From assembly GCA_907163225.1 (NCBI GenBank), contig OU015322.1:1354501-1418500 (forward strand): a DNA stretch of 64,000 nucleotides, read 5' to 3'. The notes beneath the pieces are model-generated. The model worked only from the letters and a program-made list of their open reading frames with translations, ran no database searches and was not told the DNA's origin. Source of the stretch: an uncultured Rhodocyclaceae bacterium. Lineage in GTDB: Bacteria; Pseudomonadota; Gammaproteobacteria; Burkholderiales; Rhodocyclaceae. This document shows, piece by piece, positions 1,154 to 63,383 of this stretch (its first letter is position 1; the number at the start of each line of letters is the position of its first letter). The position numbers and the translations under genes were made by a program.

Positions 1154-4100
1154 TCAGAACTCTTCCCATTCATCGTCCAGGCTGGCTGCAAGTGCCGGCG
1201 CTTTTTTGGCTGCGACGCGCTCGGTGTTTGGCGTCGGCGCAGTAGTGTCGCGCAGATTGCGACGTGGTGCATCCAGGCGCGGCTTGCTACCAGTATCTGT
1301 CGTACGGAAGGTGGCTACGGTCTGGGTGAGATGATGCGCCTGCTCCTCCAGGCTTTCCGCAGCGGCGGCAGCCTCTTCAACCAAGGCCGCATTTTGCTGA
1401 GTTACTTCATCCATCTGACTCACCGCCAGGCTAACCTGTTCGATACCTGCGCTTTGCTCACGGCTGGCGTCGGAAATATCGCTCATGATTTTGGCAACGC
1501 GCTTGATACTGGAAACGACTTCTTCCATGGTTTGCCCGGCCTGATCAACCAGTTGGTTGCCGTTTTCAACCTTTTCAACAGAATCGGAGATCAGCTCTTT
1601 GATTTCCTTGGCAGCCGCGGCACTACGCTGGGCGAGATTGCGAACCTCAGTAGCAACGACAGCAAAGCCGCGCCCCTGCTCCCCGGCCCGGGCCGCCTCA
1701 ACTGCCGCATTCAGCGCGAGGATGTTGGTCTGGAAGGCAATACCATCGATGACACCGATGATGTCCGCGATCTTGCCACTCGAGTGGTGGATCGCACTCA
1801 TGGTGTCAACCACCAGGCCAACCACTTCACCGCCCTTGACTGCGACGGTCTGAGCATTGCCAGCAAGCTCATTGGCCTGCCGGGCATTGTCCGCATTCTG
1901 CTTCACCGTACTGGTCAGCTGCTCCATGCTTGAGGCCGTTTCTTCAAGGCTGCTGGCCTGCTGTTCAGTTCGGCTCGACAAATCCTGATTGCCCGAAGCA
2001 ATTTCCTTGGCGGCCGTATTGATTGTTTCAGAGGATTGCTGGATATCTCCCACCAGGGCGCGCAGCTTGGTGACTGTTTCGTTGGCATCGTCGCGCAAGC
2101 GGCCAAACGTACCCTGATAATCGCTGCTCACGGTCTGGGTGAGGTCACCCGCAGCCACCTTCGATAGCAGATCAGCGATCTCGCCAATGGCCGAGCCGCT
2201 GGTTTCAACCAGGCTGTTGATACCCGTACCCAGCTCCTTGTAGAAGCCTTCCAGTGCAGAAATATCCAGGCGCGCCTCAAGGTCACCAGCTGAAGCACGC
2301 GCGATCAGCGCAGCGACGGAGCGCTGCGCGTTCAATTCTGCTGTGCGGTCCACCCACTCACCAACAGTACCCAGGCGCTGACCACGATCATTGACGATTG
2401 GATTGGTGATGACGTTATAGATGCGACGGCCGATATCGAGTTCAGTCTGGCGTGTTCCCTGCAACTCGCGCAAGGACTTGAGCGCTGCTTCCGGATCCTG
2501 ATAAAAACCGCCAATATTGCTGCCAATAAAGCGGTCAACCGAAAAATTCGGCTGCTGTTCGCGCAATCCCGGTTCGATCTGGCGCAATGTAGTCAACAGA
2601 CCCTTGTTGGCGTAGATCACCGTGCCATCATCGTCGGCAATCCGAAGATTGGCTGAAACACAGTCCAGCGCGATACGGATGCGGAGGTTATCGTTGGCGA
2701 TACGATGCGATTCTGCGACGTTGAACCCTTGCTGAATCTGCATGGATTGCAAACCTTGAAGAACCTGTCCGACCTCATCATTCGCGCCAACATCCAGTGG
2801 CGTATCGTATCGACCCTCTGCAAGGTCGTTGAACACCGGCAGCACTTTTTTCTTAAGCGGAACGACGATCAGTTTTCCAATCAGCCAATACAGGAAAGCC
2901 GCTAGCAAGAGCGCCAGCGCCAAGCCGCCTAGCATGACAAAACGACTGACCTGAGCAGAAAGCGCGCGGAATTCTTCGACATACGTACCACCGGCGATCA
3001 ACCACTTGGTATCTGGCAAGGTGTCGAATACGACGATTTTTTCGCGCGCTGCCGTGTCGCCAAGTTCGGCATTGATCCAGGGATAGCTTATTTCGCCGCT
3101 GCCCCGTTCCAGCATTTCACGGATAAATTCGCGTCCGCCAGCATCCTTGGCCGACAGAATATTGGTTCCCTCCTTGGCTGGATGCACGATCAGACTGCCG
3201 TAGTCCTTGCCCGGATTTGCATCGAGCACATAGTAGTAACCACTCTCTCCCACTTTCAAGGCGCGTATCTGCTTCTTCAGCACATCGAGCTCGGTAGAGA
3301 TATCCAGGCCGATAAATGTTGCGCCGATGATTTTTCCGCCTTCGGCAAGAATCGGCGTATAGCTGGTGTAATAAGCCTTCCCGAAAAGGTTGGCGCGCCC
3401 CACATAGGCCTTTCCTGCCAACAAAGCCGCCAATGCCGGGTGCTCCTTGGCCAGATTGGCCCCAACCGCCCGCTCGCCATTTTCCTTCTTGACCGAAGTA
3501 GAAATTCGGGAGAAATCATCTCCTTTTCGGACAAAGATGGTCGCTACCGCCCCCGTTTTCTCGGTAAATCGATCAACCAGCTCAAATTTACCGTTGAGCA
3601 CCTCGCCCCTGGCCAGTTTCAATACGGGCTGCTCTTCCGGCCCATCCAGCACCACCTCATCATGGAACGACATATCAAAGCCACGATTCAGTTGAATGGC
3701 TTCTTTGCGCAGGGACGCGAGATTCGTCTCAACCATCCCGCGTATCAGTCCAACATCATTTTTAAGGGTGTCGCGCCCCTGGATATCAAGTAGCGTGCCG
3801 ACATGGTTGCCCAGCAACTTGGTCGCACCGCCAAGAATGATGCCGAAACCCAACAGGACACCCAGCACAATTTTCTGCGACGAGGAAGCGCCGGAAAACC
3901 AGCGATGCGCGGCGCCAAGGAGGCCGCCAGAAACCACATTGCCGTGGTAAATCTCTTTGCCGCCTGCTTTTTTCTCGCGAATCGCACGGTAGGCGGCATC
4001 AGCATCCGCAATCTGTTGCGGCGTCGCCTTACGACGAACGGACATGTAACCAACGACCTGGCCATTCTCGCGCAAGGGTGTGGCATTGGCCAGAACCCAG

Positions 4101-4378
4101 TAGTGATCGCCGTTCTTGCAGCGATTTTTGACCATGCCCGTCCACGGGCGACCATCCTTCAAGTCCCGCCAAAAATCAGCGAAAGCTTCGGTCGGCATGT
4201 CCGGATGACGAACGATGTTGTGGGGCTGTCCGATCAGTTCGGCTTCGGTAAAACCACTGATGTCAATGAAGTCCTTGTTGATGAATGTAATCTGCCCCTT
4301 CAGATCCGTCTTGGAGACGATAAGGACATGTTGATCCAGTTCAACTTCGACATTCGTCACAGGCAGGTTATTTCGCAT
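1154..4378 (-). CDS. Aer-like chemoreceptor with PAS, Cache-type sensor and second PAS
   Basis: This 1074-residue methyl-accepting protein has, in order: an Aer-type PAS domain (about 10-125) that in Aer binds FAD, a membrane helix (about 170-190), a Cache-like sensor segment (about 195-485, with GYYYVLDANP), a second membrane helix (about 490-512), a HAMP region, a PAS-like domain (about 560-690) and the kinase-control hairpin with tip sequence AFQTNILALNAAVEAARAGE. It ends in EWEEF, a CheR/CheB tether pentapeptide. A cytoplasmic PAS at the N-terminus plus an extracytoplasmic Cache suggests sensing of both redox/energy state and an external ligand; the ligand is unknown. A copy of the dispersed GCGGTCAACC repeat lies inside the second PAS at 2530-2551. 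Confidence 0.9.
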   Translation of the reverse strand: MRNNLPVTNVEVELDQHVLIVSKTDLKGQITFINKDFIDISGFTEAELIGQPHNIVRHPDMPTEAFADFWRDLKDGRPWTGMVKNRCKNGDHYWVLANATPLRENGQVVGYMSVRRKATPQQIADADAAYRAIREKKAGGKEIYHGNVVSGGLLGAAHRWFSGASSSQKIVLGVLLGFGIILGGATKLLGNHVGTLLDIQGRDTLKNDVGLIRGMVETNLASLRKEAIQLNRGFDMSFHDEVVLDGPEEQPVLKLARGEVLNGKFELVDRFTEKTGAVATIFVRKGDDFSRISTSVKKENGERAVGANLAKEHPALAALLAGKAYVGRANLFGKAYYTSYTPILAEGGKIIGATFIGLDISTELDVLKKQIRALKVGESGYYYVLDANPGKDYGSLIVHPAKEGTNILSAKDAGGREFIREMLERGSGEISYPWINAELGDTAAREKIVVFDTLPDTKWLIAGGTYVEEFRALSAQVSRFVMLGGLALALLLAAFLYWLIGKLIVVPLKKKVLPVFNDLAEGRYDTPLDVGANDEVGQVLQGLQSMQIQQGFNVAESHRIANDNLRIRIALDCVSANLRIADDDGTVIYANKGLLTTLRQIEPGLREQQPNFSVDRFIGSNIGGFYQDPEAALKSLRELQGTRQTELDIGRRIYNVITNPIVNDRGQRLGTVGEWVDRTAELNAQRSVAALIARASAGDLEARLDISALEGFYKELGTGINSLVETSGSAIGEIADLLSKVAAGDLTQTVSSDYQGTFGRLRDDANETVTKLRALVGDIQQSSETINTAAKEIASGNQDLSSRTEQQASSLEETASSMEQLTSTVKQNADNARQANELAGNAQTVAVKGGEVVGLVVDTMSAIHHSSGKIADIIGVIDGIAFQTNILALNAAVEAARAGEQGRGFAVVATEVRNLAQRSAAAAKEIKELISDSVEKVENGNQLVDQAGQTMEEVVSSIKRVAKIMSDISDASREQSAGIEQVSLAVSQMDEVTQQNAALVEEAAAAAESLEEQAHHLTQTVATFRTTDTGSKPRLDAPRRNLRDTTAPTPNTERVAAKKAPALAASLDDEWEEF
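2530..2551 (+). repeat. Dispersed GCGGTCAACC/A-tract repeat, copy 1 (inside mcp)
   Basis: Core GCGGTCAACC is followed by an A5 tract at +11. The second tract is missing, so this is one of the less complete copies. It is read as Pro-Asn-Phe-Ser-Val-Asp-Arg on the coding strand, nearly the same peptide as the copy in ccoI although the proteins are unrelated. Confidence 0.55.
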
Positions 4379-4408
4379 CGTTGCTTATCCGTCGAGTCGC
4401 TATGGTTA

Positions 4409-7400
4409 TTAGAATTCGGCCCACTCGTCTTCGCCCGGCGCAGCCAGCGCCGGTACCGAGTCGAAAGAGGTTTTTTTCGGGGTAGCTGCGGTCAACATCT
4501 TGGGAGGCACGCTTTTTCCCCCGGAACGCATGCTCTCAAGCAGGCCGATCACCCTTGCCGAGCGATTGCTAAACTCGCCTGCAATCTGCTCACGTGCCGC
4601 TTGGCTGTTACCAACCATGTGGGTGCGGATGACATCTGCTGCACAACGATGAAAGCCCGCGTGCTCTCCCTTGAGGGCGACATATTGTGTGTTTCCGCGC
4701 AACGAGCGGCCATCACCATGAATCCAGCAACCGAGGGCACACTGGTCATCTCGCCCCACGACAGAGGGATCAAGTTGCTCACCCCCTCCCGTGACGTAAT
4801 CCAGCAGGCGCTGTTTCCATTTACCGTGCGCCGTAATTGCCCCGTCGAAATCAAGTCCGGAGAGATCGGATTGACCTTGAATCACCAATCCGCCAGAGAG
4901 CCGAAATACCGACACTGACTCAGCCAGATTGCGAGCTTGCTCTTCAAGACTTTCTGCGGCAGCCGCGGCCTGCTCGACCAAGGCGGCATTCTGCTGCGTC
5001 ATCTCATCCATCTGGCTGACAGCCAGGCCAACCTGTTCGATACCCGCCGTTTGTTCGCGGCTGGCGTGTGAAATATCGGCCATGATCTTCGCAACGCGCT
5101 GGATGCTGGAAACAACTTCATCCATCGTCCGCCCCGCCTGATCAACCAGCCGACCGCCAGTTTGAACCTTGTCGACGGAGTCTGAGATCAAAACCTTGAT
5201 CTCCTTGGCGGCTGCCGCGCTGCGCTGGGCAAGATTGCGCACCTCCGTTGCGACCACTGCGAAACCCCGGCCTTGCTCGCCGGCACGCGCCGCTTCGACG
5301 GCCGCATTGAGCGCCAATATATTGGTCTGGAAAGCTATGCCATCAATAACGCTGATAATGTCGGAAATCTTGTTTGAGGACTGGTGGATGGCCCCCATAG
5401 TCTCCACAACCTGCCCCACAACTAGCCCACCTTTCTCCGCCACTTGCTGAGCGCTATTCGCTAGTTCATTGGCCTGACGGGCATTGTCTGCATTCTGTCT
5501 GACCGTGCTGGTCAACTCTTCCATGCTCGATGCAGTTTCTTCCAGACTGGATGCCTGCTGCTCGGTACGTGATGAAAGATCCTGATTGCCGCTGGCAATT
5601 TCCTGAGCCGCCGTATTAATTGCATCGGTCGCGCTCTTGATTGAAAAAACGATCTCCTGCAAGTTATCGACTGTCAGATTTGCGTCATCCTTCAAACGGC
5701 CAAGCACCCCTTGATACTCGGTATCAATCTTCCGGGTCAGATCACCCTGAGAGAGGCTGGTAAGCGTTGCACCCAAATCACTCAAAGCACGACTATTCAC
5801 TTCAAGCAGGTCGTTAATACCGGTGGAAATCTGGCGAAAAAAGCCGCTCAGGTTTTCAGCCGCGATGCGTCGCGAAAAGTCACCAGAAGTTGCTGCCGAA
5901 ATGATGCCGTTAACTTCGTTCTCAACGGCCACTTCGGCAGTGCGATCGATCCATTCAACTACAGTTCCAAGACGTTCGTTGCGCTCGTTACTGATCGGAG
6001 ACGCGACCAAACTAAATATCCGCCCGCCGACCGAAATCTGGGCGCGATGCACGCTTTTCAGTGCCCCGAGGAGGTTGCGCTGATGCGCGGGGTTCTTGTG
6101 GAAGATATCGATATTTGACCCGAGGATCGTGCTGGCTCTGAAATTCGGCAAATCCTTGCGGATGTCCTCTTCGGCTGCGCGCATCATTTCCAAGACTGCC
6201 GCGTTGCAGTAGACGACCCCGCCATTGGGGTCAGCGACCATCACACTATTTGAAGAGGAATCCAGAGCCACCTTGATACGCAAAGTCTCGTCTGCAGCCA
6301 TCCGGTCAGCTTCCAGGCGCCCACGAAGCTGGGTTTGCATGTCATCCATCCGCCGCACCATGTGACCGATTTCATCGTTGCCTTCGGCGGAAAGCGGCAC
6401 ATCGAGGCGACCACCAGCAATTTGGTCAAGCGCATTGGCCGCGCTTACTATGGCCCGATTGACACGCCGCAGGATAACGAAAGCCACCGCGGCCGATAAT
6501 GCAACGAGGCCAAGGGTAATCAGCAGGACAAATAGCCGATCTTTTTTAACCCGATCAATGCGCTGCTCCAGCGCCTGGTCAAGAAAGCGCGACCCTTCAT
6601 CGTAAAGTTTGAATGACGTATCAATGGCAGCTGTCGTTTCATCGAAAAACCGAGGCGCTTCATATACCAGCGGATCAGCCTTCAGAATATTTTTGTCTAT
6701 ATTGTCGATAAAAGTTGCTATTCCTGCTTTGGCAGCCCCAAAAACTTCGGTCAGCTTCTGCTTTGCTGATGCATCTGTTGCAAATATGCTTTCCCCATCC
6801 GCTGAAATGCTTTTTTGGCGCATCAGCGCCTCGGAATAGGCGGAAACGATGGCATCACGTCGATTGAGGTCAAGCGATTTCTCAGAAAGGATCACCGACC
6901 CCAAGGCACGGGCCTGCCCCATGCGTTCGGTAGACGGCGGAACCTGGAGAATGGTCAGATCCATTGCAAAATAGCTGACCGGTTCCGGATCCAAAATCAA
7001 GCCCGACTTCTCGGCAACATCATTCATTACATCCATCAGGACATTTATCCTGGCCGTATGCTGTTTGGCGTTCTCTTGCGGAGCGAGGGCTTTGAAATCG
7101 GATTTCAGCGACTGCCAACCAGACTTGAACTCACCCCACAATTCGGGTTTTGGCAGATCGGCCTCGACGCTCGTAATAACTGTATCAGCCTTGGCAATGG
7201 CCTCATCAACGCCAGCACGTGCCTTGTCGGCGCGTGCCCTGAACTCCTCTTTCCCGGAAAGCAGGGCAGTTGATGTTCCGCGATGTTTTTGTATTTCCTG
7301 CAGCACTTGCCTGAGTTCGCGATGAACTGATACCCCCGTCCGCTCCTTCTCGGCCAACGCGATCTGGTCGTTGTAACCTTTGACCAAGGGAACAATGGGT

Positions 7401-7474
7401 ACCGCCAGGGCAATCACGATCACCAACCCCAGCCCCAAGAACTTATTCGCCAATTTCGCAGACTTCATCGACAT
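4409..7474 (-). CDS. Chemoreceptor with PAS and C-terminal CZB zinc-binding domain
   Basis: This 1021-residue methyl-accepting protein has a membrane helix (about 14-34), an extracytoplasmic helical sensor (about 35-310) with RELRQVLQEIQKHRGTS, which looks like nitrate/nitrite-sensing NIT-type helices, a second membrane helix (about 313-335), HAMP, a PAS domain (about 400-510) and the signalling hairpin (NILALNAAVEAARAGEQGR). After the hairpin is a CZB domain (about 868-945) with AHGKWKQRL, CALGCWIHG and HAGFHRC, giving the His/Cys/His/His zinc ligands known from CZB proteins that sense zinc or oxidants such as hypochlorite. It ends in EWAEF, a CheR tether. It sits between cheW and the PAS-receptor and appears to be a tandem relative of the latter. 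Confidence 0.9.
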   Translation of the reverse strand: MSMKSAKLANKFLGLGLVIVIALAVPIVPLVKGYNDQIALAEKERTGVSVHRELRQVLQEIQKHRGTSTALLSGKEEFRARADKARAGVDEAIAKADTVITSVEADLPKPELWGEFKSGWQSLKSDFKALAPQENAKQHTARINVLMDVMNDVAEKSGLILDPEPVSYFAMDLTILQVPPSTERMGQARALGSVILSEKSLDLNRRDAIVSAYSEALMRQKSISADGESIFATDASAKQKLTEVFGAAKAGIATFIDNIDKNILKADPLVYEAPRFFDETTAAIDTSFKLYDEGSRFLDQALEQRIDRVKKDRLFVLLITLGLVALSAAVAFVILRRVNRAIVSAANALDQIAGGRLDVPLSAEGNDEIGHMVRRMDDMQTQLRGRLEADRMAADETLRIKVALDSSSNSVMVADPNGGVVYCNAAVLEMMRAAEEDIRKDLPNFRASTILGSNIDIFHKNPAHQRNLLGALKSVHRAQISVGGRIFSLVASPISNERNERLGTVVEWIDRTAEVAVENEVNGIISAATSGDFSRRIAAENLSGFFRQISTGINDLLEVNSRALSDLGATLTSLSQGDLTRKIDTEYQGVLGRLKDDANLTVDNLQEIVFSIKSATDAINTAAQEIASGNQDLSSRTEQQASSLEETASSMEELTSTVRQNADNARQANELANSAQQVAEKGGLVVGQVVETMGAIHQSSNKISDIISVIDGIAFQTNILALNAAVEAARAGEQGRGFAVVATEVRNLAQRSAAAAKEIKVLISDSVDKVQTGGRLVDQAGRTMDEVVSSIQRVAKIMADISHASREQTAGIEQVGLAVSQMDEMTQQNAALVEQAAAAAESLEEQARNLAESVSVFRLSGGLVIQGQSDLSGLDFDGAITAHGKWKQRLLDYVTGGGEQLDPSVVGRDDQCALGCWIHGDGRSLRGNTQYVALKGEHAGFHRCAADVIRTHMVGNSQAAREQIAGEFSNRSARVIGLLESMRSGGKSVPPKMLTAATPKKTSFDSVPALAAPGEDEWAEF

Positions 7475-7535
7475 CTCCCTACTCAGCGCTTGCGCTTCAA
7501 ATTTTTCTGACTCATTTCAACCCTACCGCCACGGC

Positions 7536-8036: not shown

Positions 8037-8058
8037 CTCTTGCTCCTCGATTCAGCCG

Positions 8059-10395
8059 TCAGCCGGCCTTTTGCACACTTGTCTTCGCCATGCCGGCAAT
8101 TGCCGACACGTCCAAAATTAGCGCGACGTGACCATCACCCATGATGGTTGCACCGGAAATTCCTTGTACACGCCGGTAGTTCGCCTCCAAACTCTTAATC
8201 ACGACCTGGTGCTGTCCAACCAACGCATCGACAAACAACGCTGCGCGGATACCATCGGCATCTATGACCACCATGATGCCCTGCGAAAAATCATTTGCGC
8301 TCGGCTTGATGTTGAACAGTTCGTGCAAAACAATCACCGGGAGATACTCGCCTCGAACCTGAATTACCCTAGCCTGATTGGACATGGTTTTGATATCGCC
8401 GATTTCTGGCTGGAAGGACTCCATGACGAAAGAAAGCGGCAGGATATAGGTCTGGGCGCCCACGGCAATCGACATGCCATCAAGGATTGCCAGAGTTAAT
8501 GGCAGGCGAACCGTCATCCGGGTACCAACCCCCAGAATGGACTCGATATCGACCCGCCCCCCCATTGCCTGAATATTTCGGCGCACCACATCCATGCCCA
8601 CACCACGCCCGGAAACATCAGTCACCTGATCGGCAGTCGAAAATCCTGCCTCAAAAATCAGCAGAAAGACCTCCTGATCGGTCATTTGGTCGGAGACAGG
8701 AAGCCCTCGCTCACGGGCTTTGGCAAGAATTTTGTTACGTGGCAAGCCAGCGCCGTCGTCACCAACTTCAATAACGACATTCCCGCCCTGGTGGTAGGCC
8801 TTCAGCGTAATGGTTCCGACTGGATTCTTGCCCGCAGCAATGCGCGTTTCAGGTAGTTCGATTCCATGATCAAGACTATTTCGAATCAAGTGCGTTAGCG
8901 GGTCGGCGATTCGTTCAATCAGTCCTTTGTCTAGCTCTGTCGTTTCCCCTGAAGTTTTGAGTTCGACTTGCTTGCCTAGCTTGCTGGAAAGGTCTCGGAC
9001 GACGCGCGGAAAACGGGAGAACACAAAGGAAATCTGCATCATCCGGATGGACATCACCGACTCCTGCAGATCTCGTGTATTTCTCTCCAGCTGTGCCAAA
9101 CCGTTGATTAGCCGCTCCGGCGCGCTTTCTTGCATCTGTCCTGCAGTTTGCAGCAACATCGCCTGTGTAATCACCAACTCACCGACAAGGTTGATCAGTT
9201 GGTCGACTTTTTCAATGCTGACGCGGATTGAAGAATCCGTAGAAGCACTGGCTGGCGCCAACGCCTTGGCGCTCCTGACACGGGTTTCCGGTATCAGTTT
9301 TTCTGCAGAATCCACTTTTGGCGGTAGCGCGCCTTGTACTACCAATGGTGCGTTGACATGCGCCGGCTGAGCATCAGATTCCGCAGATGCTGGAATTGGT
9401 GCAAAAAATCCGAACCCATCACCGTCCTCAAGACCAGGGCTTGCGGCGACAGGCGTTGGCAATGGGGCAAAAAAACCATACCCGTCAGTTTCTTCGTTCG
9501 TGCTCGATGGCCCATCTGGGGCTGCCACAATAGATGGCATAGGTTCAAAAAAACCATAGCTCGCGTCATCTTCAAGCGAGGTACTGTCGAGCGGAGCGAA
9601 AAAACCGTAGCTTCGGTCCTCATCCGGAGCCCCGGGAGAATCTCCAAAGAAACCGAATGCAGAATCACCGTCATTAGAAACGGACATGTCTTCGACTACG
9701 CGCCATGCGCCATTTTCGGCAATGAAATCGATTTGATCGGAAAAGTCGTCCTGACACGCCTCTGTAGCCAAACGAACCTGCCAGTAGCCCACGTCGTGCA
9801 TCCCTGCCTCTGGCTGACTCAAAATCTCCAGAGCGCCCATCGAACGGAATTCATCAAGCAGGTTGGCAACACCATCACCTTTGGCGGATATTTCAGTAGG
9901 AACAAATTGAATATCGAATACACGCTTGCGGTGGGCAAGAGGGCCGGGCCCTTCTGGCACAACAATTTCAGCAGACACCTCGGGAGAATCCTGCGACGAT
10001 GCTTCATCGCCGGTAGACAATTGGCGAAGGCGGCTACAAATTGCCTCTACGGCAATGGGGTCTACCGCTCCTCGCCCCTGGTGCGCTTCAAGCATTTCGC
10101 GCAACAGATCTCCGGACTCGAGAAAGGCATCCACCATATCTGCCCGTAACTCAAGCTCCTGCTTACGGATGCGATCAAGCAGATTTTCAAGAATATGGGT
10201 AGTTTCCGCCAAGTCCGAAAACCCAAAAGTTCCAGCGCTTCCCTTGATCGAGTGAGCGGCACGGAATATGGCATTGAGTTGCTCGGAGTCTGGATTTTCA
10301 ATATCCAGACCGAGCAAGAGCCCCTCCATCGCCGCCAAATGCTCTGCCGATTCCTCGAAGAACACTTGGTAGAACTGACTCATATCGATAGTCAT
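8059..10395 (-). CDS. cheA: Chemotaxis histidine kinase CheA with repeated GFF linker motifs
   Basis: This 778-residue kinase phosphorylates CheY in response to receptor state. The HPt domain has the phospho-accepting His48 in AAHSIKGSAGTFGF; the dimerization helices (VDQLINLVGELVITQAM), the ATPase domain (HLIRNSLDHGIE, GDDGAGLP, GRGVGMDVV) and the CheW-like regulatory domain follow. Between HPt and dimerization lies a long linker holding five near-repeats of the form [Y/F]GFF-x-P-[L/M/I] (about residues 245-350) in an acidic, proline-rich context. The ATG at 10395 is chosen over an upstream in-frame start because AGGGGG precedes it and the HPt domain begins there. Confidence 0.95.
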   Translation of the reverse strand: MTIDMSQFYQVFFEESAEHLAAMEGLLLGLDIENPDSEQLNAIFRAAHSIKGSAGTFGFSDLAETTHILENLLDRIRKQELELRADMVDAFLESGDLLREMLEAHQGRGAVDPIAVEAICSRLRQLSTGDEASSQDSPEVSAEIVVPEGPGPLAHRKRVFDIQFVPTEISAKGDGVANLLDEFRSMGALEILSQPEAGMHDVGYWQVRLATEACQDDFSDQIDFIAENGAWRVVEDMSVSNDGDSAFGFFGDSPGAPDEDRSYGFFAPLDSTSLEDDASYGFFEPMPSIVAAPDGPSSTNEETDGYGFFAPLPTPVAASPGLEDGDGFGFFAPIPASAESDAQPAHVNAPLVVQGALPPKVDSAEKLIPETRVRSAKALAPASASTDSSIRVSIEKVDQLINLVGELVITQAMLLQTAGQMQESAPERLINGLAQLERNTRDLQESVMSIRMMQISFVFSRFPRVVRDLSSKLGKQVELKTSGETTELDKGLIERIADPLTHLIRNSLDHGIELPETRIAAGKNPVGTITLKAYHQGGNVVIEVGDDGAGLPRNKILAKARERGLPVSDQMTDQEVFLLIFEAGFSTADQVTDVSGRGVGMDVVRRNIQAMGGRVDIESILGVGTRMTVRLPLTLAILDGMSIAVGAQTYILPLSFVMESFQPEIGDIKTMSNQARVIQVRGEYLPVIVLHELFNIKPSANDFSQGIMVVIDADGIRAALFVDALVGQHQVVIKSLEANYRRVQGISGATIMGDGHVALILDVSAIAGMAKTSVQKAG

Positions 10396-10445
10396 GCTAC
10401 CCCCTGACCTCGGCCTCCAGAAAACTGGCAACCGGAAATGGAATG

Positions 10446-10470
10446 CAAAAGACCCGCGCTATTGCGGGCC
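10446..10470 (-). terminator. Hairpin with short U-run between cheY and cheA
   Basis: On the minus strand a CCCGC/GCGGG stem with a 6-base loop is followed by TCTTTT. It lies between the cheY stop and the cheA start, so it probably attenuates rather than ends the operon, allowing more CheY than CheA. Confidence 0.45.
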
Positions 10471-14666: not shown

Positions 14667-14744
14667 GCCTCCGCAGCCAATTGCGGCTGTTCTGAAAGTA
14701 GGAAAACTAGCGGTTTGACGCCATTGTTTCTGTTTTAACGATTA

Positions 14745-14776
14745 CTGCGGTCAACCTGAAAAACGTCCGAAAAATC
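14745..14776 (+). repeat. Dispersed GCGGTCAACC/A-tract repeat, copy 2 (intergenic)
   Basis: The core CTGCGGTCAACC is followed by A5 tracts starting at exactly +12 and +23 from the first G of GCGGT. It lies just past the end of the Nudix gene. Confidence 0.8.
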
Positions 14777-14921
14777 AATCATTCAAGTATTTTTAGCGAA
14801 TTGGCGCGCCGTCCTCTGTTCGACGATAAGCAAAATGACAAAGCCAGCAAACGTACTGGTGAAAGACGTCACAGCGCACCAACCTGCGCATGCCACAACA
14901 TGCCCCATACCCACCAACAAA

Positions 14922-20906: not shown

Positions 20907-23347
20907 CAATCCGTCTCCACGCGCTGGATGCGCAGCGAATTAAGCACCACCAACAGAGAACTGGCTGACATGCCAATCCCGGCGATCCAGGGGGTTACGA
21001 ACCCCGCGATAGCCAACGGCAGAGCGACAAAGTTGTACGCGAAAGACCACCATAGATTCTGCCGGATGACCTGTAGCGTTTTCCGGGCGCGGCGCAAACC
21101 ATAGCGCAAATGGTCGAGGTTTTCAGAAAGCAGGATGAAATCAGATTGCGTTCTGGCCAACTGGGCGCCGCCGCCCATGGCGATCGAGACCTGCGCCTGC
21201 GCCAGCACGGGCGCATCATTGACGCCATCACCCAGCATGGCCACCACAGCACCCTGAGCCTGCAAGTCGGTCACGCAATCGTGCTTGCCCTGCGGAGTCA
21301 CCCCCGCCCGAACATCATCAATCCCCAGCTGGCGAGCCACACGATGGGCAACCGCCGGCGCATCGCCAGTCAGCAAGATGACCTTTTTGCCGGTGGCGCG
21401 AAGCTCGGCAACCAACGTGGCGGACTCTTTTCGCACCTCATCACCGATTCGAAAGAGCGCAATGCAACCCGACTCATCGCCGAGAACGACGACCGTATCG
21501 CCGCTATCCAGCCAGCCAATCGCGGCATCTGGCAAGTTTTCCGCACTCAAGCCAAGCGCGTAGTCAGGCCGACCAATTCGGCAACGACGCCCCGCCACCA
21601 CGGCCTCGATGCCCTGCCCCGGTTCGTTGATAGCGGCCACGGTATCGGGCAATTGGAGGCTCGCTGCCTGCTGCAACGCTCTTGCCACCGGGTGCTCGGA
21701 CGCATGCTCAAGTGCCGCAGCAATTGCAAGGCATTCTTCCTTAGTGCGCCCTGACAGGGGAAGCACATCGACCAGATGCATGCGCCCCGTTGTCAGGGTT
21801 CCCGTTTTATCGAAAACGAAATGGGTCGCCCTGGATAGGGTTTCGATGGCGTGCCCACGCGTCACGAGCAGACCATCCTTGGCTAATGCCCCCGCAGCCA
21901 CGGTCAGCGCAATCGGTGTGGCCAGCGAAAGCGCGCACGGGCAAGTCACGACGAGGACGGAAACGGTGATCCACAAGGCTTTGGCAGGATCGACGATGGT
22001 CCAGCCAACAGCCACCAGGACAGCGACAAGCAACAAGGCAGCGACGAAATAGCTGGCGATGCGATCGGCCAGAACGACAATTTTGGGCTTTTCAGTCGCC
22101 GCCCGCTCCATGAGTTGAATGATCGCCGACAGCCGGGTGCTTTCGCCCACTTGTTCGACTTGCACGACCAGCGGACTCTCGGCATTGACCGAACCGCCGG
22201 TGACCAGCTCGCCGGGCGCCTTCGGCACCGGTTTGCTTTCGCCGGTGAGCAGCGCCTCGTTGGCGCAACTGATGCCTTCAATGACACGCCCGTCAGCCGG
22301 CACAATATCGCCGGGTCGCACCAGGACGTAATCGCCCTGGCGCAGATCAGCGACGACACATTGCTCGGTGCTGCGGTCAACCGGAAAATTCGGCATTTTT
22401 TGAGAAAACGCCGGCATCAATCGGGCCAGCGCCTCGGTGACGCTGAGCGCCTTTTGTCGCGCCGTCATTTCAAGATAGCGGCCGCCGAGCAGGAAGAAAA
22501 CAAACATCGTCACCGAATCAAAATAGACCTCGCCAGCCTGGCTCAAAGTTGCCCAGCAACTGGCCAGGAAAGCGGCGCCGACACCCAGCGCCACCGGCAC
22601 ATCCATACCGACGCGACGTAGCTTGATGTCACGCCAGGCATTGCGAAAAAACGGGGCAGATGAATAAAAGACAACCGGCAAGGTGAGCAAGAAGCTGGCC
22701 CAGCGCATCAGGCTCTCAACGTCCGCCGTCATATCGCCATCGGCGATGTACATGGGGTAGGCGTACATCATCACCTGCATCATGCCGAAACCGGCCACCC
22801 ACAGGCGCCACAGGGCGTCACGCCGCTCCTTGCTGGAAATTTCCTCGTTTTTCGCGGCGTCGTACGGGTAGGCGCGATAGCCGATGGCTGCGATGGCACC
22901 GAGAATTTCCGAGAGCTTGATCCGTGACTCATCCCAGCGAACGCGCGCCCGACGGGTCGTGTAGTTGATATTGACCGCCGTCACCCCCGGCAAATGACCG
23001 ACATGCTGCTCGTTCAGCCAGATACAAGCGGAGCAGGTAATACCCTCGAGCAACAACGACGCCTCTCGCTCGGTTTCCCCCAAGGTCTTGACGAAGCTGT
23101 TCTGGAAGTCGGCATGATCGAAGAGGGCCAACTGATCGAGAATCGCCGGCACCGCCTCTCGCGGCGATTCAGGTAGTGCGTCGCGGCTGCGGTAGTACTC
23201 CGCCAGCCCGTTATCGACGATCGACTGCGCCACCGCCTGACAACCATTGCAGCACATTGACCGCGATTCTCCTGCGACAGTCACCGAAAGCTCGACGTCA
23301 TCCGGAACGGGCAGGCCGCAGTGATAGCAACAGTTAGCGTGAGACAT
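20906..23347 (-). CDS. ccoI: P1B-type copper ATPase for cbb3 oxidase assembly (CcoI/FixI)
   Basis: This 813-residue heavy-metal P-type ATPase exports copper for oxidase maturation. In order: an N-terminal Cys-rich zinc-finger-like segment (CCYHCG, CCNGCQ), an HMA domain with CSACIW, membrane helices including the CPC copper site (VVTCPCALSLATP), the phosphorylation site DKTGTLT, the HP motif (EHASEHPVARAL) and GDGVNDAPVL. The ATG at 23347 is the only ATG near the start; a TTG two codons earlier is possible. A dispersed repeat copy lies inside at 22370-22401, between the actuator domain and the preceding helices. Confidence 0.95.
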   Translation of the reverse strand: MSHANCCYHCGLPVPDDVELSVTVAGESRSMCCNGCQAVAQSIVDNGLAEYYRSRDALPESPREAVPAILDQLALFDHADFQNSFVKTLGETEREASLLLEGITCSACIWLNEQHVGHLPGVTAVNINYTTRRARVRWDESRIKLSEILGAIAAIGYRAYPYDAAKNEEISSKERRDALWRLWVAGFGMMQVMMYAYPMYIADGDMTADVESLMRWASFLLTLPVVFYSSAPFFRNAWRDIKLRRVGMDVPVALGVGAAFLASCWATLSQAGEVYFDSVTMFVFFLLGGRYLEMTARQKALSVTEALARLMPAFSQKMPNFPVDRSTEQCVVADLRQGDYVLVRPGDIVPADGRVIEGISCANEALLTGESKPVPKAPGELVTGGSVNAESPLVVQVEQVGESTRLSAIIQLMERAATEKPKIVVLADRIASYFVAALLLVAVLVAVGWTIVDPAKALWITVSVLVVTCPCALSLATPIALTVAAGALAKDGLLVTRGHAIETLSRATHFVFDKTGTLTTGRMHLVDVLPLSGRTKEECLAIAAALEHASEHPVARALQQAASLQLPDTVAAINEPGQGIEAVVAGRRCRIGRPDYALGLSAENLPDAAIGWLDSGDTVVVLGDESGCIALFRIGDEVRKESATLVAELRATGKKVILLTGDAPAVAHRVARQLGIDDVRAGVTPQGKHDCVTDLQAQGAVVAMLGDGVNDAPVLAQAQVSIAMGGGAQLARTQSDFILLSENLDHLRYGLRRARKTLQVIRQNLWWSFAYNFVALPLAIAGFVTPWIAGIGMSASSLLVVLNSLRIQRVETD
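22370..22401 (+). repeat. Dispersed GCGGTCAACC/A-tract repeat, copy 3 (inside ccoI)
   Basis: The core GCTGCGGTCAACCGG is complete, with AAAATT at +12 and an ATTTTTT tract at +22. On the coding strand it reads Asn-Phe-Pro-Val-Asp-Arg-Ser. Confidence 0.8.
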
Positions 23348-58042: not shown

Positions 58043-58060
58043 TTTAAGTTTCCGCTTTGA

Positions 58061-58099
58061 AAAACGGCCACCGCGGTTAGCCAACCCGGTGGCCGTTTT
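58061..58099 (+). terminator. Terminator after pckG
   Basis: A 12-bp stem AAAACGGCCACC/GGTGGCCGTTTT is followed by a T-rich stretch. It ends 4 bases before the ribosome site of the aminotransferase, so that gene may be expressed by read-through. Confidence 0.8.
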
Positions 58100-58114
58100 G
58101 TTTTGGAGAACCGC

Positions 58115-59308: not shown

Positions 59309-59845
59309 CCCGGGGTAGCGCGCGCGCAGCGCGGCCCAATCGAAACAGGGCCCGGGGTCAGTCTTGCGTCCGGGCGCAATATGGCAGTGTCCGGCGATGG
59401 CGGTGATTGGGTACTGCGTGCGCAACGCATCCAGCACGCGCCAGAGTGCCGAGTATTGTTCGGCCGTGAACGGCTGCGTATCCGAGCCCTCAAGTTCGAT
59501 GCCCACCGAATAGTCGTTGCAGTTGTCCCGCTCGCACCAGCATGACTGCCCGGCATGCCAGGCCCGCTGACCACAGCCGACGAACTGGATGATCCGACCA
59601 TCTCGTCGGATGTAAAAATGGGCCGAGACCTGCATCTCGAAAATTGTCGAAAAATACGGGTTGACCGTGGGATCCAGCCGATTGAGGAAAAAGTCCTCGA
59701 CCCAGTCGCCGCCAAACTCGTCCGGCGGCAAACTGATGTTGTGGATGACCACCAATGACACCGGATCGCCGGCCGGCCTTTCGCCAAAATTGGGCGAAGG
59801 CAGCCAGCGCACGCCATCCAGCCAACCGTCAGCCTGCCACGACAT
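59279..59845 (-). CDS. ampD: Cytoplasmic N-acetylmuramyl-L-alanine amidase AmpD
   Basis: This 188-residue zinc amidase of the peptidoglycan recycling pathway cleaves anhydro-MurNAc-peptides. Zinc ligands fit VVIHNISLPP (His34-like) and AGHCHIAPGRKTDPGPCFDW (His and Asp). There is no signal peptide, as expected for AmpD. The ATG overlaps the pilR stop (TGATG). A dispersed repeat copy lies at 59644-59668. Confidence 0.93.
   Translation of the reverse strand: MSWQADGWLDGVRWLPSPNFGERPAGDPVSLVVIHNISLPPDEFGGDWVEDFFLNRLDPTVNPYFSTIFEMQVSAHFYIRRDGRIIQFVGCGQRAWHAGQSCWCERDNCNDYSVGIELEGSDTQPFTAEQYSALWRVLDALRTQYPITAIAGHCHIAPGRKTDPGPCFDWAALRARYPGLTLPAEITA
59644..59668 (-). repeat. Dispersed GCGGTCAACC/A-tract repeat, copy 12 (inside ampD, ACGGT variant)
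   Basis: The minus-strand core CCACGGTCAACCCG has AT-rich tracts at +12 and +23. It shares about 20 contiguous bases (one mismatch) with the intergenic copy at 41079-41121. Confidence 0.6.
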
Positions 59846-61161
59846 CACTCGATGCCCAGGCGCTCAAGACGGTAGCGCATCGAGCGAAAAGTGACACCCA
59901 GCAAGCGAGCTGCCGCGGTTCGATTGCCCTCGGCTTTTTGCAGGGCTTCGAGAATCGCCTGACGCTCCAGGCGATTGAGGTAGTCATCCAGCGACTCAGC
60001 GCCGCGACCTTGCTCCTCGCCACCCGGCATATCCTCCGGGCCAAGGTGCAGGTCTTCAACTTCGATGCTGTCATCGGCGCAAAGCGCTGTCGCCCGTTCG
60101 AGAATATTCTCCAGTTCGCGGACATTGCCCGGGAATGAATATAACGACAGCGCCTTCACGGCGGCGCTCGACAGCTTGGGCGGCGAATCCCCGAAAACCC
60201 GGCGCAAGATGGCCTCGACCAGCGGCACGATGTCTTCCATGCGCTCGCGCAGAGGCGGCATGCGCAATTCAATGACGTTCAGGCGGTAATACAAGTCCTG
60301 CCGGAACGCGCCCTTGTCGACCAATTCGCGCAGATTTTTGTGAGTGGCGCAGATGATCCGGACATCGACCGGCTCTTCGGCAACACTGCCCACCTTGCGC
60401 ACGCGCTTCTCCTGAATGGCGCGCAGCAACTTGACCTGCATGGCCAGCGGCAGGTCGGCGACTTCATCCAGAAACAGGGTGCCACCGTGGGCTGCGTGGA
60501 AAAAGCCGTCGCGCTCGCTATCTGCGCCGGTGAACGCACCTTTGCGATAGCCAAAAAACTCGCTTTCCATCAGGTTTTCAGGGATTGCACCGCAGTTGAC
60601 CGGGACAAACGTTCCGGCCGCCCGCGCGCTGCGGCTGTGGATAAGGCGCGCCGCCAGTTCCTTGCCGCTACCGGATTCGCCGGAGATATAAATGGGCGCC
60701 TGGCTGCGCGCCAGCTTCTCGATCATCGCCCGCACCTGCTGCATGCTGGGCGAATCACCGAGCAAGGACTGCAGGGGATTTTCGCTATCGGCCGCCCCAC
60801 CGGGCAAACGCAAGGCGGATTTGATCAGGGTTCGCAACTGTTCGAGGCCAACCGGTTTGGACAGATAATCGAAAGCGCCCGCCTTGAGAGCAGCCACCGC
60901 ATTTTCGGCGCTGCCATAGGCCGTAATGACGGCAACCGGGGTCTGGGGATGGTGCTCGGTAATGTAGCGAACAATGTCCAGGCCCTCGCCATCGGGCAGA
61001 CGCATATCGGTCAGGCAAAGCTGAAACTCGTCAGCATCCAGCACGGCGCGCGCTTCGGCAACCGAACCAACGCATTCGGTCGCCAGGCCCATGCGGACCA
61101 GCGTCAGATCGATCAGTTCGCGGATATCGGCCTCGTCATCGATGACGAGCACCCGGCTCAT
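59845..61161 (-). CDS. pilR: Type IV pilus response regulator PilR (sigma-54 activator)
   Basis: This 438-residue NtrC-family regulator has a receiver domain (Asp in CLTDMRLPDGEG, about residue 51), an AAA+ domain (GESGSGKELAARLIH, GAFTGA, FLDEVADLPL) and a Fis-type helix-turn-helix (NRTAAARLLGVTFRSMRYRLERLGIE). In other bacteria PilR turns on pilA transcription. The start at 61161 overlaps the pilS stop (ATGA). No pilin gene is in the window. Confidence 0.92.
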   Translation of the reverse strand: MSRVLVIDDEADIRELIDLTLVRMGLATECVGSVAEARAVLDADEFQLCLTDMRLPDGEGLDIVRYITEHHPQTPVAVITAYGSAENAVAALKAGAFDYLSKPVGLEQLRTLIKSALRLPGGAADSENPLQSLLGDSPSMQQVRAMIEKLARSQAPIYISGESGSGKELAARLIHSRSARAAGTFVPVNCGAIPENLMESEFFGYRKGAFTGADSERDGFFHAAHGGTLFLDEVADLPLAMQVKLLRAIQEKRVRKVGSVAEEPVDVRIICATHKNLRELVDKGAFRQDLYYRLNVIELRMPPLRERMEDIVPLVEAILRRVFGDSPPKLSSAAVKALSLYSFPGNVRELENILERATALCADDSIEVEDLHLGPEDMPGGEEQGRGAESLDDYLNRLERQAILEALQKAEGNRTAAARLLGVTFRSMRYRLERLGIE

Positions 61162-62765
61162 TTCGCCGCGTGGGCGCCGTTCAGTTCTGGCAACAGACAC
61201 GTGTCGTTTCTCCCTGCAACAATGAAATGCGCCCCGCTGGTCGAGGCCGCCAGCTCCAGGCTGGCGCCGTTGGTCGCGCACAACTCCCGGGCGATAAACA
61301 AGCCAAGCCCGGTGCCCTGCGTATGGGTCGTGAAAAATGGTTCAAAAATCTGCTCGCGCACGGTTTCCGGAACACCCGGGCCATCGTCGAGCACATGCAA
61401 TTCTACCCGCCCATCGTTGGCGACGCCCGCCAGTTCAATGCGAACGGCACCCGGGCCACGGCTCGAGTGGCGCAGGGCGTTGCTGACCAGGTTCCACAGA
61501 ACCTGATGCAGATGCGAGCGATCGAAACACAGGCTGAGCGGCATGGTTTCAAGCACGACGACGCCCGGCACCAGGTTTTCGGTTGCCATGAAGTGTTCGA
61601 GAAATCCGGCGCAAAACTCATCGGCACGAAGCAGCTCCGGCTGCGCCCTGCTCTGGCGCCCAAGCTCCAGGATATCGCCCACAATCCGATCCAGACGAAT
61701 TACATTGTCATTCAAAATGCGAAACAGCCGCTCCTGCATCTCGACCCGGCGCTCTTCGCGCAGCAGTTCGCCAGCATGGCCAATCGCCGACAACGGGTTG
61801 CGAATCTCATGGGCAATACTTGCGGTCAACCGACCCAGCGAAGCCAATTTCAACTGCTGCGCGCGCTCCTTGATGCGACCCACATCCTCCAGAAACACAA
61901 GGATTTCACCATCGGTACTCGCAGTCCGCTCAAAACGCGCCTGCAAATCCCGCCCATCCGCACCGCAGAAATGAAGCCCGCCCTCACCGCCCCCCTCAAG
62001 CCACCGCTGAATGGCCGTAGCCAGTGTCGGCACCTGCGATTCAAGCGAGGCTTCGCCCTCGTTCGGCAAGCCAAGCATCGCACTCGCCACGGGATTGCAT
62101 CGGCTAACCAGCCCGTTCTGGGCAACGATCAACACGCCATCCTGCATTCGCTCGACCACACGCTGACTGATACGAATCTGGTTATCCAGCGCCACCCCTC
62201 TTCGCCGCGCCAGGTCCTCATTGACCATCGCTCGCTGGCCCAGCAAGCGGGCCAAAATAGCCGTCGCGAAAAAGCCGGCGGAGATAAACCCGGCCTGTAC
62301 GATCGATGCCGAATCGAAGCCCAGGGCAACGATCCCGTACGCTTGTGAGAGCAACACGGCCATCGTGGCCAAGGCTGCATAAAAAAGTACGAGGCTGCCC
62401 CGCCCAACCAGGCTGGCTGCCGCGAGCGATACCAGCAGAAATACGCTCAGCCCGCTGCCCACGCCACCAGCCATCGACATCAGCGAACATACGACCGCGA
62501 TATCGACGGACATCTGCACCGACAACTGCTGATTGAAATAGCGCCGCCAGTGCGTTGCCAAAAGCAGTCCGGCAAGCGTCGAAACAATATAAACGCCGGT
62601 CAACAGAAACAGAACCGGCGAAGGCTGCAGATTCAGGCGCGATGTCCATTCATGCGGAAAAACGATCGCCAGAAAAAACAATGCCGCCAACACGAGGCGG
62701 TAAAGATTGAAATACTGGAACGAACGCCAGTTGGCCTCCCAAGTTGAAGAGAGCCAATTGACCAT
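61158..62765 (-). CDS. pilS: Type IV pilus sensor histidine kinase PilS
   Basis: This 535-residue kinase has six predicted membrane helices in its first 200 residues, a PAS-like middle part (about 225-330), the H-box LGRLTASIAHEIRNPLSAIGHAGELL with phospho-acceptor His, and the ATPase with NLVSNALRHS, DDGPGVPE and GTGLGLFIAREL. It controls PilR. The start at 62765 overlaps the PP0621-type gene stop (TGATG). Confidence 0.92.
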   Translation of the reverse strand: MVNWLSSTWEANWRSFQYFNLYRLVLAALFFLAIVFPHEWTSRLNLQPSPVLFLLTGVYIVSTLAGLLLATHWRRYFNQQLSVQMSVDIAVVCSLMSMAGGVGSGLSVFLLVSLAAASLVGRGSLVLFYAALATMAVLLSQAYGIVALGFDSASIVQAGFISAGFFATAILARLLGQRAMVNEDLARRRGVALDNQIRISQRVVERMQDGVLIVAQNGLVSRCNPVASAMLGLPNEGEASLESQVPTLATAIQRWLEGGGEGGLHFCGADGRDLQARFERTASTDGEILVFLEDVGRIKERAQQLKLASLGRLTASIAHEIRNPLSAIGHAGELLREERRVEMQERLFRILNDNVIRLDRIVGDILELGRQSRAQPELLRADEFCAGFLEHFMATENLVPGVVVLETMPLSLCFDRSHLHQVLWNLVSNALRHSSRGPGAVRIELAGVANDGRVELHVLDDGPGVPETVREQIFEPFFTTHTQGTGLGLFIARELCATNGASLELAASTSGAHFIVAGRNDTCLLPELNGAHAAK

Positions 62766-62995
62766 CAGGATTTCCCGTCTTGCGCGGCGACCCGATGCGC
62801 CTCGCAACAATAGACCCGGCCACGATCCGCCACCCCCTCGCTTTCGGGCAGATGAACCGAACAAAACGAACAGGTGACCATTTTCTCCGGGGGAGGATCA
62901 CGCCGAGTCGATGCATGGTTATCACGCGAAGATCCACGTTTCACCCACATCCACCAGACCACACCCAGCAATGCAAACAAAATCAGGTATTTCAT
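62765..62995 (-). CDS. PP0621-family small zinc-ribbon protein
   Basis: This 76-residue protein has one N-terminal membrane helix (MKYLILFALLGVVWWMWV) and a Cys-rich tail (CSFCSVHLPE and RGRVYCCEAH) that looks like a zinc-binding ribbon. It belongs to the PP0621 family found just before pilS in many beta- and gammaproteobacteria. The start at 62995 is chosen because it begins the membrane helix. Confidence 0.8.
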   Translation of the reverse strand: MKYLILFALLGVVWWMWVKRGSSRDNHASTRRDPPPEKMVTCSFCSVHLPESEGVADRGRVYCCEAHRVAAQDGKS

Positions 62996-63383
62996 CGCGT
63001 CCCCAGAAACAAAAAAAGCCCACGAAAAATCCGCAAGCCTCAATGGATTTGGGTCAAAACCAGCGCACTTGAAAGTATCTCAAGTACGTTAAAAAGACGT
63101 TTCAGACCCAGCATTTACGTCGTGCATCAACACAATCATCAAAGCGCAATTCGCCCGCAAGACATCAAGCAAGATACTCGAAGAATTTACCATATATATT
63201 TAGCGAGTATCGCAGCAGCCGGCAAGGTGAAATCTCAATTTCATTGATAACGAAAGTCACCTGCCAAGGCGTATAGGCAGCATGCCGGAATGACGTCTGC
63301 CTTTGACGCTGCGGTCAACCGTGAAAAAGGCCGAAAAAAAGGCGCCAGTCAGCCTTGGCGCCACTCCACTGAAAGCCTGACTC
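62996..63383. other. Intergenic region between the PP0621-pilS-pilR operon and the SRPBCC gene
   Basis: This 388-base AT-rich gap holds an inverted repeat ACTTGA-N7-TCAAGT at 63067-63085, a TATATAT stretch near 63191-63200, and one dispersed repeat copy. Promoters for the pil operon should lie here but none could be fixed. Confidence 0.5.
63307..63339 (+). repeat. Dispersed GCGGTCAACC/A-tract repeat, copy 13 (intergenic)
   Basis: The core GCTGCGGTCAACCG is complete, with A5 at +13 and A7 at +23. Confidence 0.85.

What the first reader, a model, noticed from the sequence alone, without database searches (positions are those of the whole stretch)
2530..63339. Dispersed 32-bp repeat that resembles an extended DNA uptake signal sequence
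At least 13 copies of GCTGCGGTCAACC followed by two A-tracts occur across 64 kb, at 2530, 14745, 22370, 25318, 30614, 33561, 38661, 41079, 46280, 50542, 58268, 59644 and 63307. Seven are on the plus strand and six on the minus. In most copies the A-tracts start at +12 and about +23 from the first G of GCGGT, one helical turn apart. Six of the 13 lie in intergenic DNA although that is a small share of the window. A GCGGT core followed by helically phased A/T tracts is the architecture known for the extended Pasteurellaceae uptake signal (core AAGTGCGGT). I am not aware of such a signal reported in Rhodocyclales. Other readings are a binding site for a DNA-organising protein or a small mobile palindrome-free repeat.
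Basis: partly seen in the sequence, partly recalled or inferred. Interest (0 to 1): 0.9.

Follow-up and report, generated by a model that had tools for sequence, protein, structure and literature searches.

The report
Likely new DNA-uptake signal sequence
A roughly 37-letter DNA word is scattered through this bacterium's chromosome and those of many relatives in the way known uptake signals are, so this group has probably evolved its own mark for recognising and taking up DNA of its own kind; no uptake experiment has been done.

Summary
The repeat is real. A 33-bit motif, TGCT-RCGGTCRAC-CGG-(A/T)5-n5-(A/T)5, occurs 161 times in a 464-kb sample of this chromosome (about 1 by chance), so about 1,200 copies per genome, equally on both strands. 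It is abundant in 40 of 76 genomes of the genus (by named records Dechloromonas/Azonexus), intermediate in 7, near background in 29, and has 0-5 hits in 241 sampled genomes of 67 other genera of the family. Details differ between species (dialects; five examined). Copies arose by substitution, not insertion. Exact cores are in excess, one-mismatch cores are not; 65% lie within genes; close pairs are avoided. These are marks of USS/DUS uptake signals. It is not a Pasteurellaceae USS: the core is CGGTCRAC, the first G is not conserved, the A/T tracts sit elsewhere. ComEC, DprA and pilus genes are present, but this strain has lost comEA and may no longer be competent. No receptor was found and uptake was not tested. 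Best reading: a third, independently evolved uptake-signal family.

The parts
14743..14779 (+). motif copy, intergenic, 35.8 bits
   Evidence: matrix scan
22369..22405 (+). motif copy inside a gene, 40.1 bits
25313..25349 (-). motif copy, intergenic, 43.2 bits
30612..30648 (+). motif copy inside a gene, 36.9 bits
33559..33595 (+). motif copy, intergenic, 46.1 bits
38656..38692 (-). motif copy, intergenic, 40.3 bits
41075..41111 (-). motif copy, intergenic, 46.4 bits
46276..46312 (-). motif copy inside a gene, 37.6 bits
50537..50573 (-). motif copy inside a gene, 41.1 bits
58267..58303 (+). motif copy inside a gene, 43.0 bits
59636..59672 (-). motif copy inside a gene, 31.6 bits
63307..63343 (+). 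motif copy, intergenic, 30.6 bits
12075..12111 (-). marginal motif copy, intergenic, 15.4 bits; below 14 bits when the window is held out of training
   Evidence: found; not found

Best explanation
The repeat is a genus-specific DNA uptake signal. During natural transformation a receptor of the type IV pilus or envelope is inferred to bind the CGGTCRAC core; the A/T tracts about one helical turn apart are inferred to help the DNA kink into the outer-membrane pore, as proposed for the Haemophilus USS (PMC7811141, passages). DNA carrying the word is taken up and recombined more often than other DNA, so alleles carrying it spread, and copies build up by point mutation through the genome. Shown here: the motif, its copy number, distribution, dialects, origin by substitution, and ComEC, DprA and pilus genes. 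Inferred: receptor binding, uptake bias, and the drive that accumulates copies. In this strain the system may be a recent relic, because comEA is gone.
For: About 1,200 copies per genome: 161 in 464 kb at 14 bits or more, against about 1. Only exact cores are in excess: without any demand on the tracts exact cores 194 against 45 in reversed and Markov-3 sequence, one-mismatch cores 680 against 822 and 737 (no excess); with both tracts fully A/T, exact 106, one mismatch 10, two 10, against 0, 2, 9 reversed. PMC1626085 describes such an excess of exact copies for USS and DUS (passages). No strand bias: by GC skew of each stretch 79 copies on the G-rich strand, 82 on the other; counts per 20 kb mean 7.1, variance 8.0. 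Close pairs avoided: under 200 bp 1 against 10.5 simulated, under 500 bp 10 against 24.9. 105 of 161 copies (65%) wholly inside called genes, 49 intergenic, 7 at edges; random placement about 83/13/4%; for H. influenzae 65% genic is printed. Of 64 same-strand in-gene copies 49 read RCG GTC RAC. Substitution, not insertion: of 176 pairs of a copy and a motif-poor genome lacking it, 88 have unchanged spacing; of the 91 with tight flanks 69 are unchanged and none is 30-60 bases shorter. Genus-limited: 40 of 76 rich, 7 middling, 29 poor; 0-5 hits in 241 sampled genomes of 67 other genera. Species dialects in five genomes. Four motif-poor genomes show no comparable 8-mer in 100 kb each. ComEC, DprA and a pilus operon are present. 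Two islands lack copies: filamentous-phage genes and a restriction/conjugation region (chosen after the fact).
Against: This strain has no ComEA: the only ComEA/HHH_3 hits are in an 834-aa and a 1,075-aa frame, and the comEA locus of its relative is replaced by unrelated DNA. G015, G062, and the less complete G003 (76%) and G058 (77%) are also motif-rich without a ComEA over the cut-off. By presence, no searched gene tracks motif abundance: ComP-family pilin in 70 of 76, ComEC 71, FimT-like 69, ComEA over the cut-off 67, DprA 75. comEC looked split, short or interrupted in 3 of 33 rich against 4 of 18 poor genomes of at least 90% completeness, p = 0.23; two of the seven may be contig breaks. 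No receptor identified. Motif windows in ortholog alignments carry more small gaps than control windows: 5 of 20 against 14 of 199 (poor), 5 of 20 against 14 of 190 (rich), 16 of 41 against 55 of 403 (other loci); I think because copies favour intergenic DNA, but did not test that. Avoidance of close pairs differs from H. influenzae, where 17% of USS are within 30 bp of another. Counts across the genus form a continuum (0-42, then 71 to 789) rather than two clean classes. No uptake data.
Confidence: 0.77

Rival explanations
1. Binding site of a chromosome-organising (nucleoid) protein: a DNA-bending protein recognises the core and phased A/T tracts at about 1,200 sites and helps fold the chromosome.
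For: Dispersal over the whole sample and avoidance of close pairs; phased A/T tracts; intergenic enrichment.
Against: Near-absence in 29 of 76 congeners and in 241 sampled genomes of other genera is hard to square with a housekeeping role; excess confined to exact cores, unlike sites of intracellular proteins as PMC1626085 argues (passages); dialects; copy-free stretches over 10 kb in islands.
Confidence: 0.12
2. Recombination or repair signal read directionally by a replication-linked enzyme (Chi-like or KOPS-like).
For: Over-represented word spread over the whole chromosome sample.
Against: No orientation bias with GC skew, 79 against 82; 33 bits is far longer than such signals (recalled); A/T tracts unexplained.
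Confidence: 0.04
3. Short mobile repeat (REP/MITE-like) copied by insertion.
For: High copy number with a strong consensus.
Against: No clean insertion in 91 tight flank comparisons, 69 with identical spacing; the 9 of 176 pairs that are 30-60 bases shorter come from 3 copies with loosely aligned flanks; in ortholog alignments different dialect forms occupy the same site; almost nothing conserved outside -4..+34.
Confidence: 0.02
4. Transcription signal: read on the other strand it resembles an UP element followed by a -35 box (TTGACC), or it acts as part of a terminator.
For: A/T tracts upstream of TTGAC on the reverse strand (sequence); intergenic enrichment; one inverted pair 26 bases apart near 127.07 kb of the chromosome.
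Against: No -10 box at the right distance: 0 of 156 sites match 5 of 6 bases, controls 6 of 936; 65% inside genes; in the 464-kb sample no pair of separate sites within 120 bp, one within 200 bp.
Confidence: 0.02

Closest known systems
Uptake signal sequence (USS) of Pasteurellaceae, Hin type AAGTGCGGT and Apl type ACAAGCGGT
   Same: Long motif with a strict core followed by two A/T segments about one helical turn apart; hundreds to over a thousand copies per genome; in H. influenzae 65% in genes; excess of exact copies; arises by substitution; clade-specific types; no general orientation bias (PMC1626085, PMC7811141, PMC12616744, PMC1939737, PMC2346458, passages).
   Different: Core is CGGTCRAC with base 1 A or G; AAGT/ACAA absent; tract centres near +16 and +26 here against about +9.5 and +21.5 in the Hin type (my reckoning from the numbering in PMC1626085, assuming its core starts at position 12); genome of 59% GC; close pairs avoided rather than common; this strain lacks ComEA.
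DNA uptake sequence (DUS) of Neisseriaceae and its ComP receptor
   Same: Same kind of genome-wide mark, with dialects inside one lineage (PMC3630211, PMC12616744, passages); a PF16732 (ComP_DUS) pilin is present.
   Different: Sequence unrelated (no invariant CTG core), longer, with A/T tracts; the PF16732 pilin here lies in the pilus operon and is present in motif-poor genomes too.

Membership tests
Pasteurellaceae USS | Core AAGTGCGGT or ACAAGCGGT with inner core GCGG | tested here: not met
   Base 1 is G 51%/A 47% in G000 and A 92% in G068; upstream TGCT, TGCY or TTTTC-like instead of AAGT/ACAA
Pasteurellaceae USS | Two downstream A/T segments about one turn apart | tested here: met
   A+T at least 0.9 at +14..+17 and +25..+28, at different offsets from the core
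Pasteurellaceae USS | Receptor ComN/PpdA (a prediction, PMC12616744) | not tested
   No ComN/PpdA ortholog search was made; only PF16732 and PF12019 pilins were searched
Neisseriaceae DUS | 10-12 bp motif with invariant CTG core | tested here: not met
   No invariant CTG in any of the five matrices
Neisseriaceae DUS | ComP receptor | tested here: inconclusive
   PF16732 pilin in 70 of 76 genomes, rich and poor alike
Uptake-signal class in general | Hundreds to thousands of dispersed copies, both strands, far above chance | tested here: met
Uptake-signal class in general | Copies arise by substitution in place | tested here: met
   69 of 91 tight pairs with identical spacing, none 30-60 bases shorter
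Uptake-signal class in general | Exact cores in marked excess over singly mismatched cores | tested here: met
   Exact 194 against 45 expected, one mismatch 680 against 737-822; with both tracts 106 against 10. Raw counts without the tract condition are dominated by chance one-mismatch words
Uptake-signal class in general | Host encodes DNA-uptake machinery | tested here: inconclusive
   ComEC, DprA, pilus operon present; ComEA absent in this strain, over the cut-off in 67 of 76 genomes of the genus
Uptake-signal class in general | DNA with the motif is taken up preferentially | not testable with these tools
   needs an uptake assay

The most novel reading that the evidence does not exclude
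A third, independently evolved family of self-recognising DNA uptake signals, in environmental betaproteobacteria, with at least three dialects inside one genus and repeated loss or gain among species; its core converged on an A/T-tract layout like that of Pasteurellaceae, and its receptor is a still unknown pilin or envelope protein that does not track with the type of pilus operon.
Probability: 0.68. Interest if true: 0.88.

Novelty: new variant of a known kind. Interest (0 to 1): 0.82.

Why it matters
The papers seen describe sequence-specific DNA uptake in two families only (PMC7811141, passages), so it has been hard to separate causes from accidents of history. A third origin, confined to one genus in which 40 genomes carry the signal and 29 lack it, would give a natural experiment on how uptake specificity starts, diverges into dialects and is lost. 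Features shared across origins (strict core plus phased A/T tracts) would point to mechanical needs of DNA entry. It would also show who exchanges genes with whom in these communities, and offer a practical tag for transforming these bacteria.

Tried and rejected
An apparent run of plus-strand hits beyond 2.05 Mb is, I judge, the listing's cap; the totals, 65 and 70, are balanced. Mobile-repeat, promoter and Chi-like readings tested and disfavoured. A link between motif abundance and presence of ComP-family pilin, ComEC, FimT-like pilin, ComEA or DprA was looked for genus-wide and not found. The pilus operon as seat of the receptor: in G000 and G073 the PF16732 and PF12019 pilins lie within about 1 kb, in G068 about 7 kb apart, yet G068 and G073 share a dialect, so those pilins do not obviously track it. 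Other uptake words in four motif-poor genomes: none as strong, 8-mers reach z 6.1 at most in 100 kb each (the motif words reach 7.3 and 6.8 in equal samples of G068 and G073, but in G064 and G039 other repeats swamp the list, so a weaker word could be missed). A comEC tree (40 genomes, one gene) shows rich and poor genomes intermingled: 10 changes for rich against 13.1 shuffled, 33 of 500 as low; 7 for poor against 9.9, 4 of 500 as low. BLAST alignments spanning copies (81) showed more small gaps in motif windows than in controls and are biased against long gaps, hence the separate flank test. G039's own matrix is weak (19.6 bits). No structure prediction was run.
Full report
OBSERVATION. The 10-mer GCGGTCAACC with at most one mismatch occurs 23 times in the window against 6.4 expected (0 of 100 shuffles as high). 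The window is part of a single-contig 3,463,890-base genome, G000. There GCGGTCAACCNNNAAAA occurs 135 times (65 and 70 on the two strands) and its reversal 0 times. From a roughly even sample (window plus 20 stretches of 20 kb; 464 kb including 2,500 masked letters) a weight matrix over -4..+33 was built. It carries 32.9 bits and finds 161 copies at 14 bits or more, against a mean of 1.0 in Markov-4 sequence and 1 in the reversed sequence: about 347 per Mb, or 1,200 per genome by extrapolation. Trained without the window it finds 18 copies in the window and 0 in the reversed window.

ANATOMY. Consensus TGCT-[A/G]CGGTC[A/G]AC-CGG, then an A/T tract at +14..+18, a G/C-rich gap, an A/T tract at +24..+28 and a weak A-rich patch at +31..+34. 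Each tract may be A or T: typed by at least 3 of 4 letters, A/A 59, A/T 25, T/A 14, T/T 9 of 161, the rest mixed or unclassed. Outside this only bases -6 and -5 rise above 0.1 bit (0.17 and 0.13; an earlier matrix covers -20..+60). The excess lies in exact cores alone: exact RCGGTCRAC 194 against 45 in both reversed and Markov-3 sequence; one mismatch 680 against 822 and 737; two mismatches 6,090 against 6,308 and 6,211. With both tracts fully A/T: 106, 10 and 10 against 0, 2 and 9 reversed (the same counts).

DISTRIBUTION IN THE GENOME. Using the GC skew of each stretch, 79 copies lie on the G-rich strand and 82 on the other; counts per 20 kb have mean 7.1 and variance 8.0. Copies keep apart: 1 pair under 200 bp against 10.5 simulated, 10 under 500 bp against 24.9. 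With genes called by a simple codon-usage method of my own (398 genes, 85.5% coding), 105 of 161 copies are wholly inside genes, 49 intergenic, 7 at edges; random placement gives about 83, 13 and 4%. Of the 57 strongest copies (38 bits or more) 33 are intergenic. Of 64 same-strand in-gene copies 49 read RCG GTC RAC. For H. influenzae the printed figures are 65% of USS in ORFs with about 86% of the genome coding (passages of PMC2346458; 956 copies, 65%, PMC1626085). Two copy-free stretches hold mobile or foreign genes: about 13.8 kb with replication-initiator, Zot-type and secretin genes as in filamentous phages, and about 14 kb with type I restriction and TraG-type genes. They were picked because they lacked copies, so this is suggestive only.

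DISTRIBUTION AMONG SPECIES. With RCGGTCRACNNNNWWWWNNNNNNNWWWW, 76 genomes of the genus give 0 to 789 hits, reversed control 0-4: by my cut-offs 40 have 60 or more, 7 have 18-59, 29 have 17 or fewer; the counts form a continuum rather than two clean classes. In the family, 241 genomes of 67 other genera, drawn evenly from a larger group, give 0-5. With the stricter pattern 59 genomes of other families of the order give 0 or 1. Named records were found with the 20-mer GCTGCGGTCAACCGGAAAAA: 44 of 46 stretches come from Dechloromonas, Azonexus or unnamed Betaproteobacteria, Rhodocyclaceae or Proteobacteria MAGs, among them the isolate Dechloromonas sp. Dech2017 and D. denitrificans ATCC BAA-841 (3 copies in 8 kb); the hits in a Sphingobium and in a MAG called Desulfotomaculum, and one in an Azonexus MAG (C21), have no second copy nearby. 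That the window's genus is Dechloromonas/Azonexus is inferred: contigs of congener G034 have the same lengths as two Dech2017 contigs (361,935 and 309,325). Matrices re-estimated in 100-kb samples differ: G068 and G073 TGCYACGGTCAACCGGAAAAA..CCAAAATTgAAA, G064 TTttCACGGTCGACcgtgaaaa, G039 CGGTCGACc..ATTTTc (weak, 19.6 bits), all around CGGTCRAC. Four motif-poor genomes show no comparable 8-mer in 100 kb each. On a comEC tree of 40 genomes rich and poor are intermingled, though the six-genome group holding G000 is all rich, 669-789 hits.

ORIGIN OF COPIES. Of 246 copies from rich or middling genomes, 40 have both flanks in at least one of 11 motif-poor genomes (177 pairs; the copy is missing in 176). 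Spacing between flanks is identical in 88 of 176 and within 6 bases in 118. Nine pairs, from 3 copies, are 30-60 bases shorter but with loosely aligned flanks. Among the 91 pairs whose flanks align close to the motif, 69 are identical, 22 differ by -12 to +18, and none is 30-60 shorter. So copies form by substitution in existing DNA. Direct alignments (81) agree, but motif windows carry more small gaps than controls: 5 of 20 against 14 of 199 in poor genomes, 5 of 20 against 14 of 190 in rich ones, 16 of 41 against 55 of 403 in other loci.

MACHINERY. This genome encodes ComEC/Rec2 (TIGR00361, 363.6 bits), DprA and a pilus operon with a PF16732-type pilin, a GspH/FimT-type pilin, a PilV-like protein (just under the family cut-off), PilW and PilY1. 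It lacks ComEA: the only hits are in an 834-aa frame (below the TIGR00426 cut-off) and a 1,075-aa frame. In G073 comEA lies between a patatin-Omp85 gene and a PD-(D/E)XK nuclease gene. In G000 homology stops inside the first (residue 368) and resumes inside the second (residue 184), and about 3.56 kb of unrelated DNA replaces about 2.48 kb; seven frames in it gave no Pfam match. Nine of 76 genomes have no ComEA over the cut-off, 5 of them rich and 4 poor, several of them incomplete. Loss of competence genes with signals retained is also described for Pasteurellaceae (PMC1626085, passages). None of five competence or pilin families tracks motif abundance by presence; sequence covariation was not tested.

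INTERPRETATION. Insertion elements, promoters, terminator pairs and replication-oriented signals are disfavoured. A nucleoid-protein site remains possible but does not readily explain the excess confined to exact cores, the dialects and the near-absence from 29 congeners. A signal read by a DNA-uptake receptor and accumulated through biased uptake and recombination explains all of these; that mechanism (Danner et al., as told in PMC7811141, passages) is inferred here, not shown. USS and DUS are regarded as convergent (PMC12616744, passages), and this motif would be a further convergence: it shares CGGT and the two-tract layout with USS but neither core nor offsets.

LITERATURE. Ten searches of the held open-access library showed, in the rows listed, no report of an uptake signal in Dechloromonas, Azonexus, Rhodocyclaceae or Rhodocyclales; some lists were cut (20 of 651, 8 of 14, 12 of 19). 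'Uptake signal sequence' with 'Dechloromonas' gave 0 papers. Subscription journals and preprints are not covered; the Mell and Redfield review was not held. Six papers were seen as found passages (PMC7811141; PMC12616744, with abstract and outline; PMC1626085; PMC1939737; PMC2346458; PMC3630211), and two more (PMC9045156, PMC10257627) were checked for mentions only.

Noticed in passing
L276 (G000:C1:1627001-1641000), about 3741-7305: About 3.6 kb of DNA unrelated to the sister genome G073 replaces comEA and cuts into both neighbouring genes in this strain; seven frames in it match no Pfam family.
   Followed up: partly
G043:C1 about 2218607-2251879 and G002:C33 about 109525-144033: The start of the ComEC domain lies about 33 kb from the rest in two genomes, suggesting an element inserted inside comEC.
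   Followed up: no
G039 and G064 samples (L208-L212, L193-L197): Very strong 8-mers: in G039 they look like a CRISPR repeat (about 90 occurrences), in G064 like a tandem repeat array; neither was examined.
   Followed up: no
own genome sample (window and L107-L126): Words TTGGAGAG, TCTCCAAC and GGAGAGGG are over-represented (TTGGAGAG 30 against 3.8 expected) and unrelated to the motif.
   Followed up: no
L123 1-13800: Possible filamentous prophage (replication initiator, Zot-type, secretin) without any motif copy.
   Followed up: partly
window 1154-7474: Two neighbouring large frames (1,074 and 1,021 aa) share 77% identical DNA over 300 bases, probably tandem paralogs.
   Followed up: no
window 9377-9558: Three spaced 38-base repeats with A-rich ends, 63-74% alike to the reference copy (family D10).
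   Followed up: no
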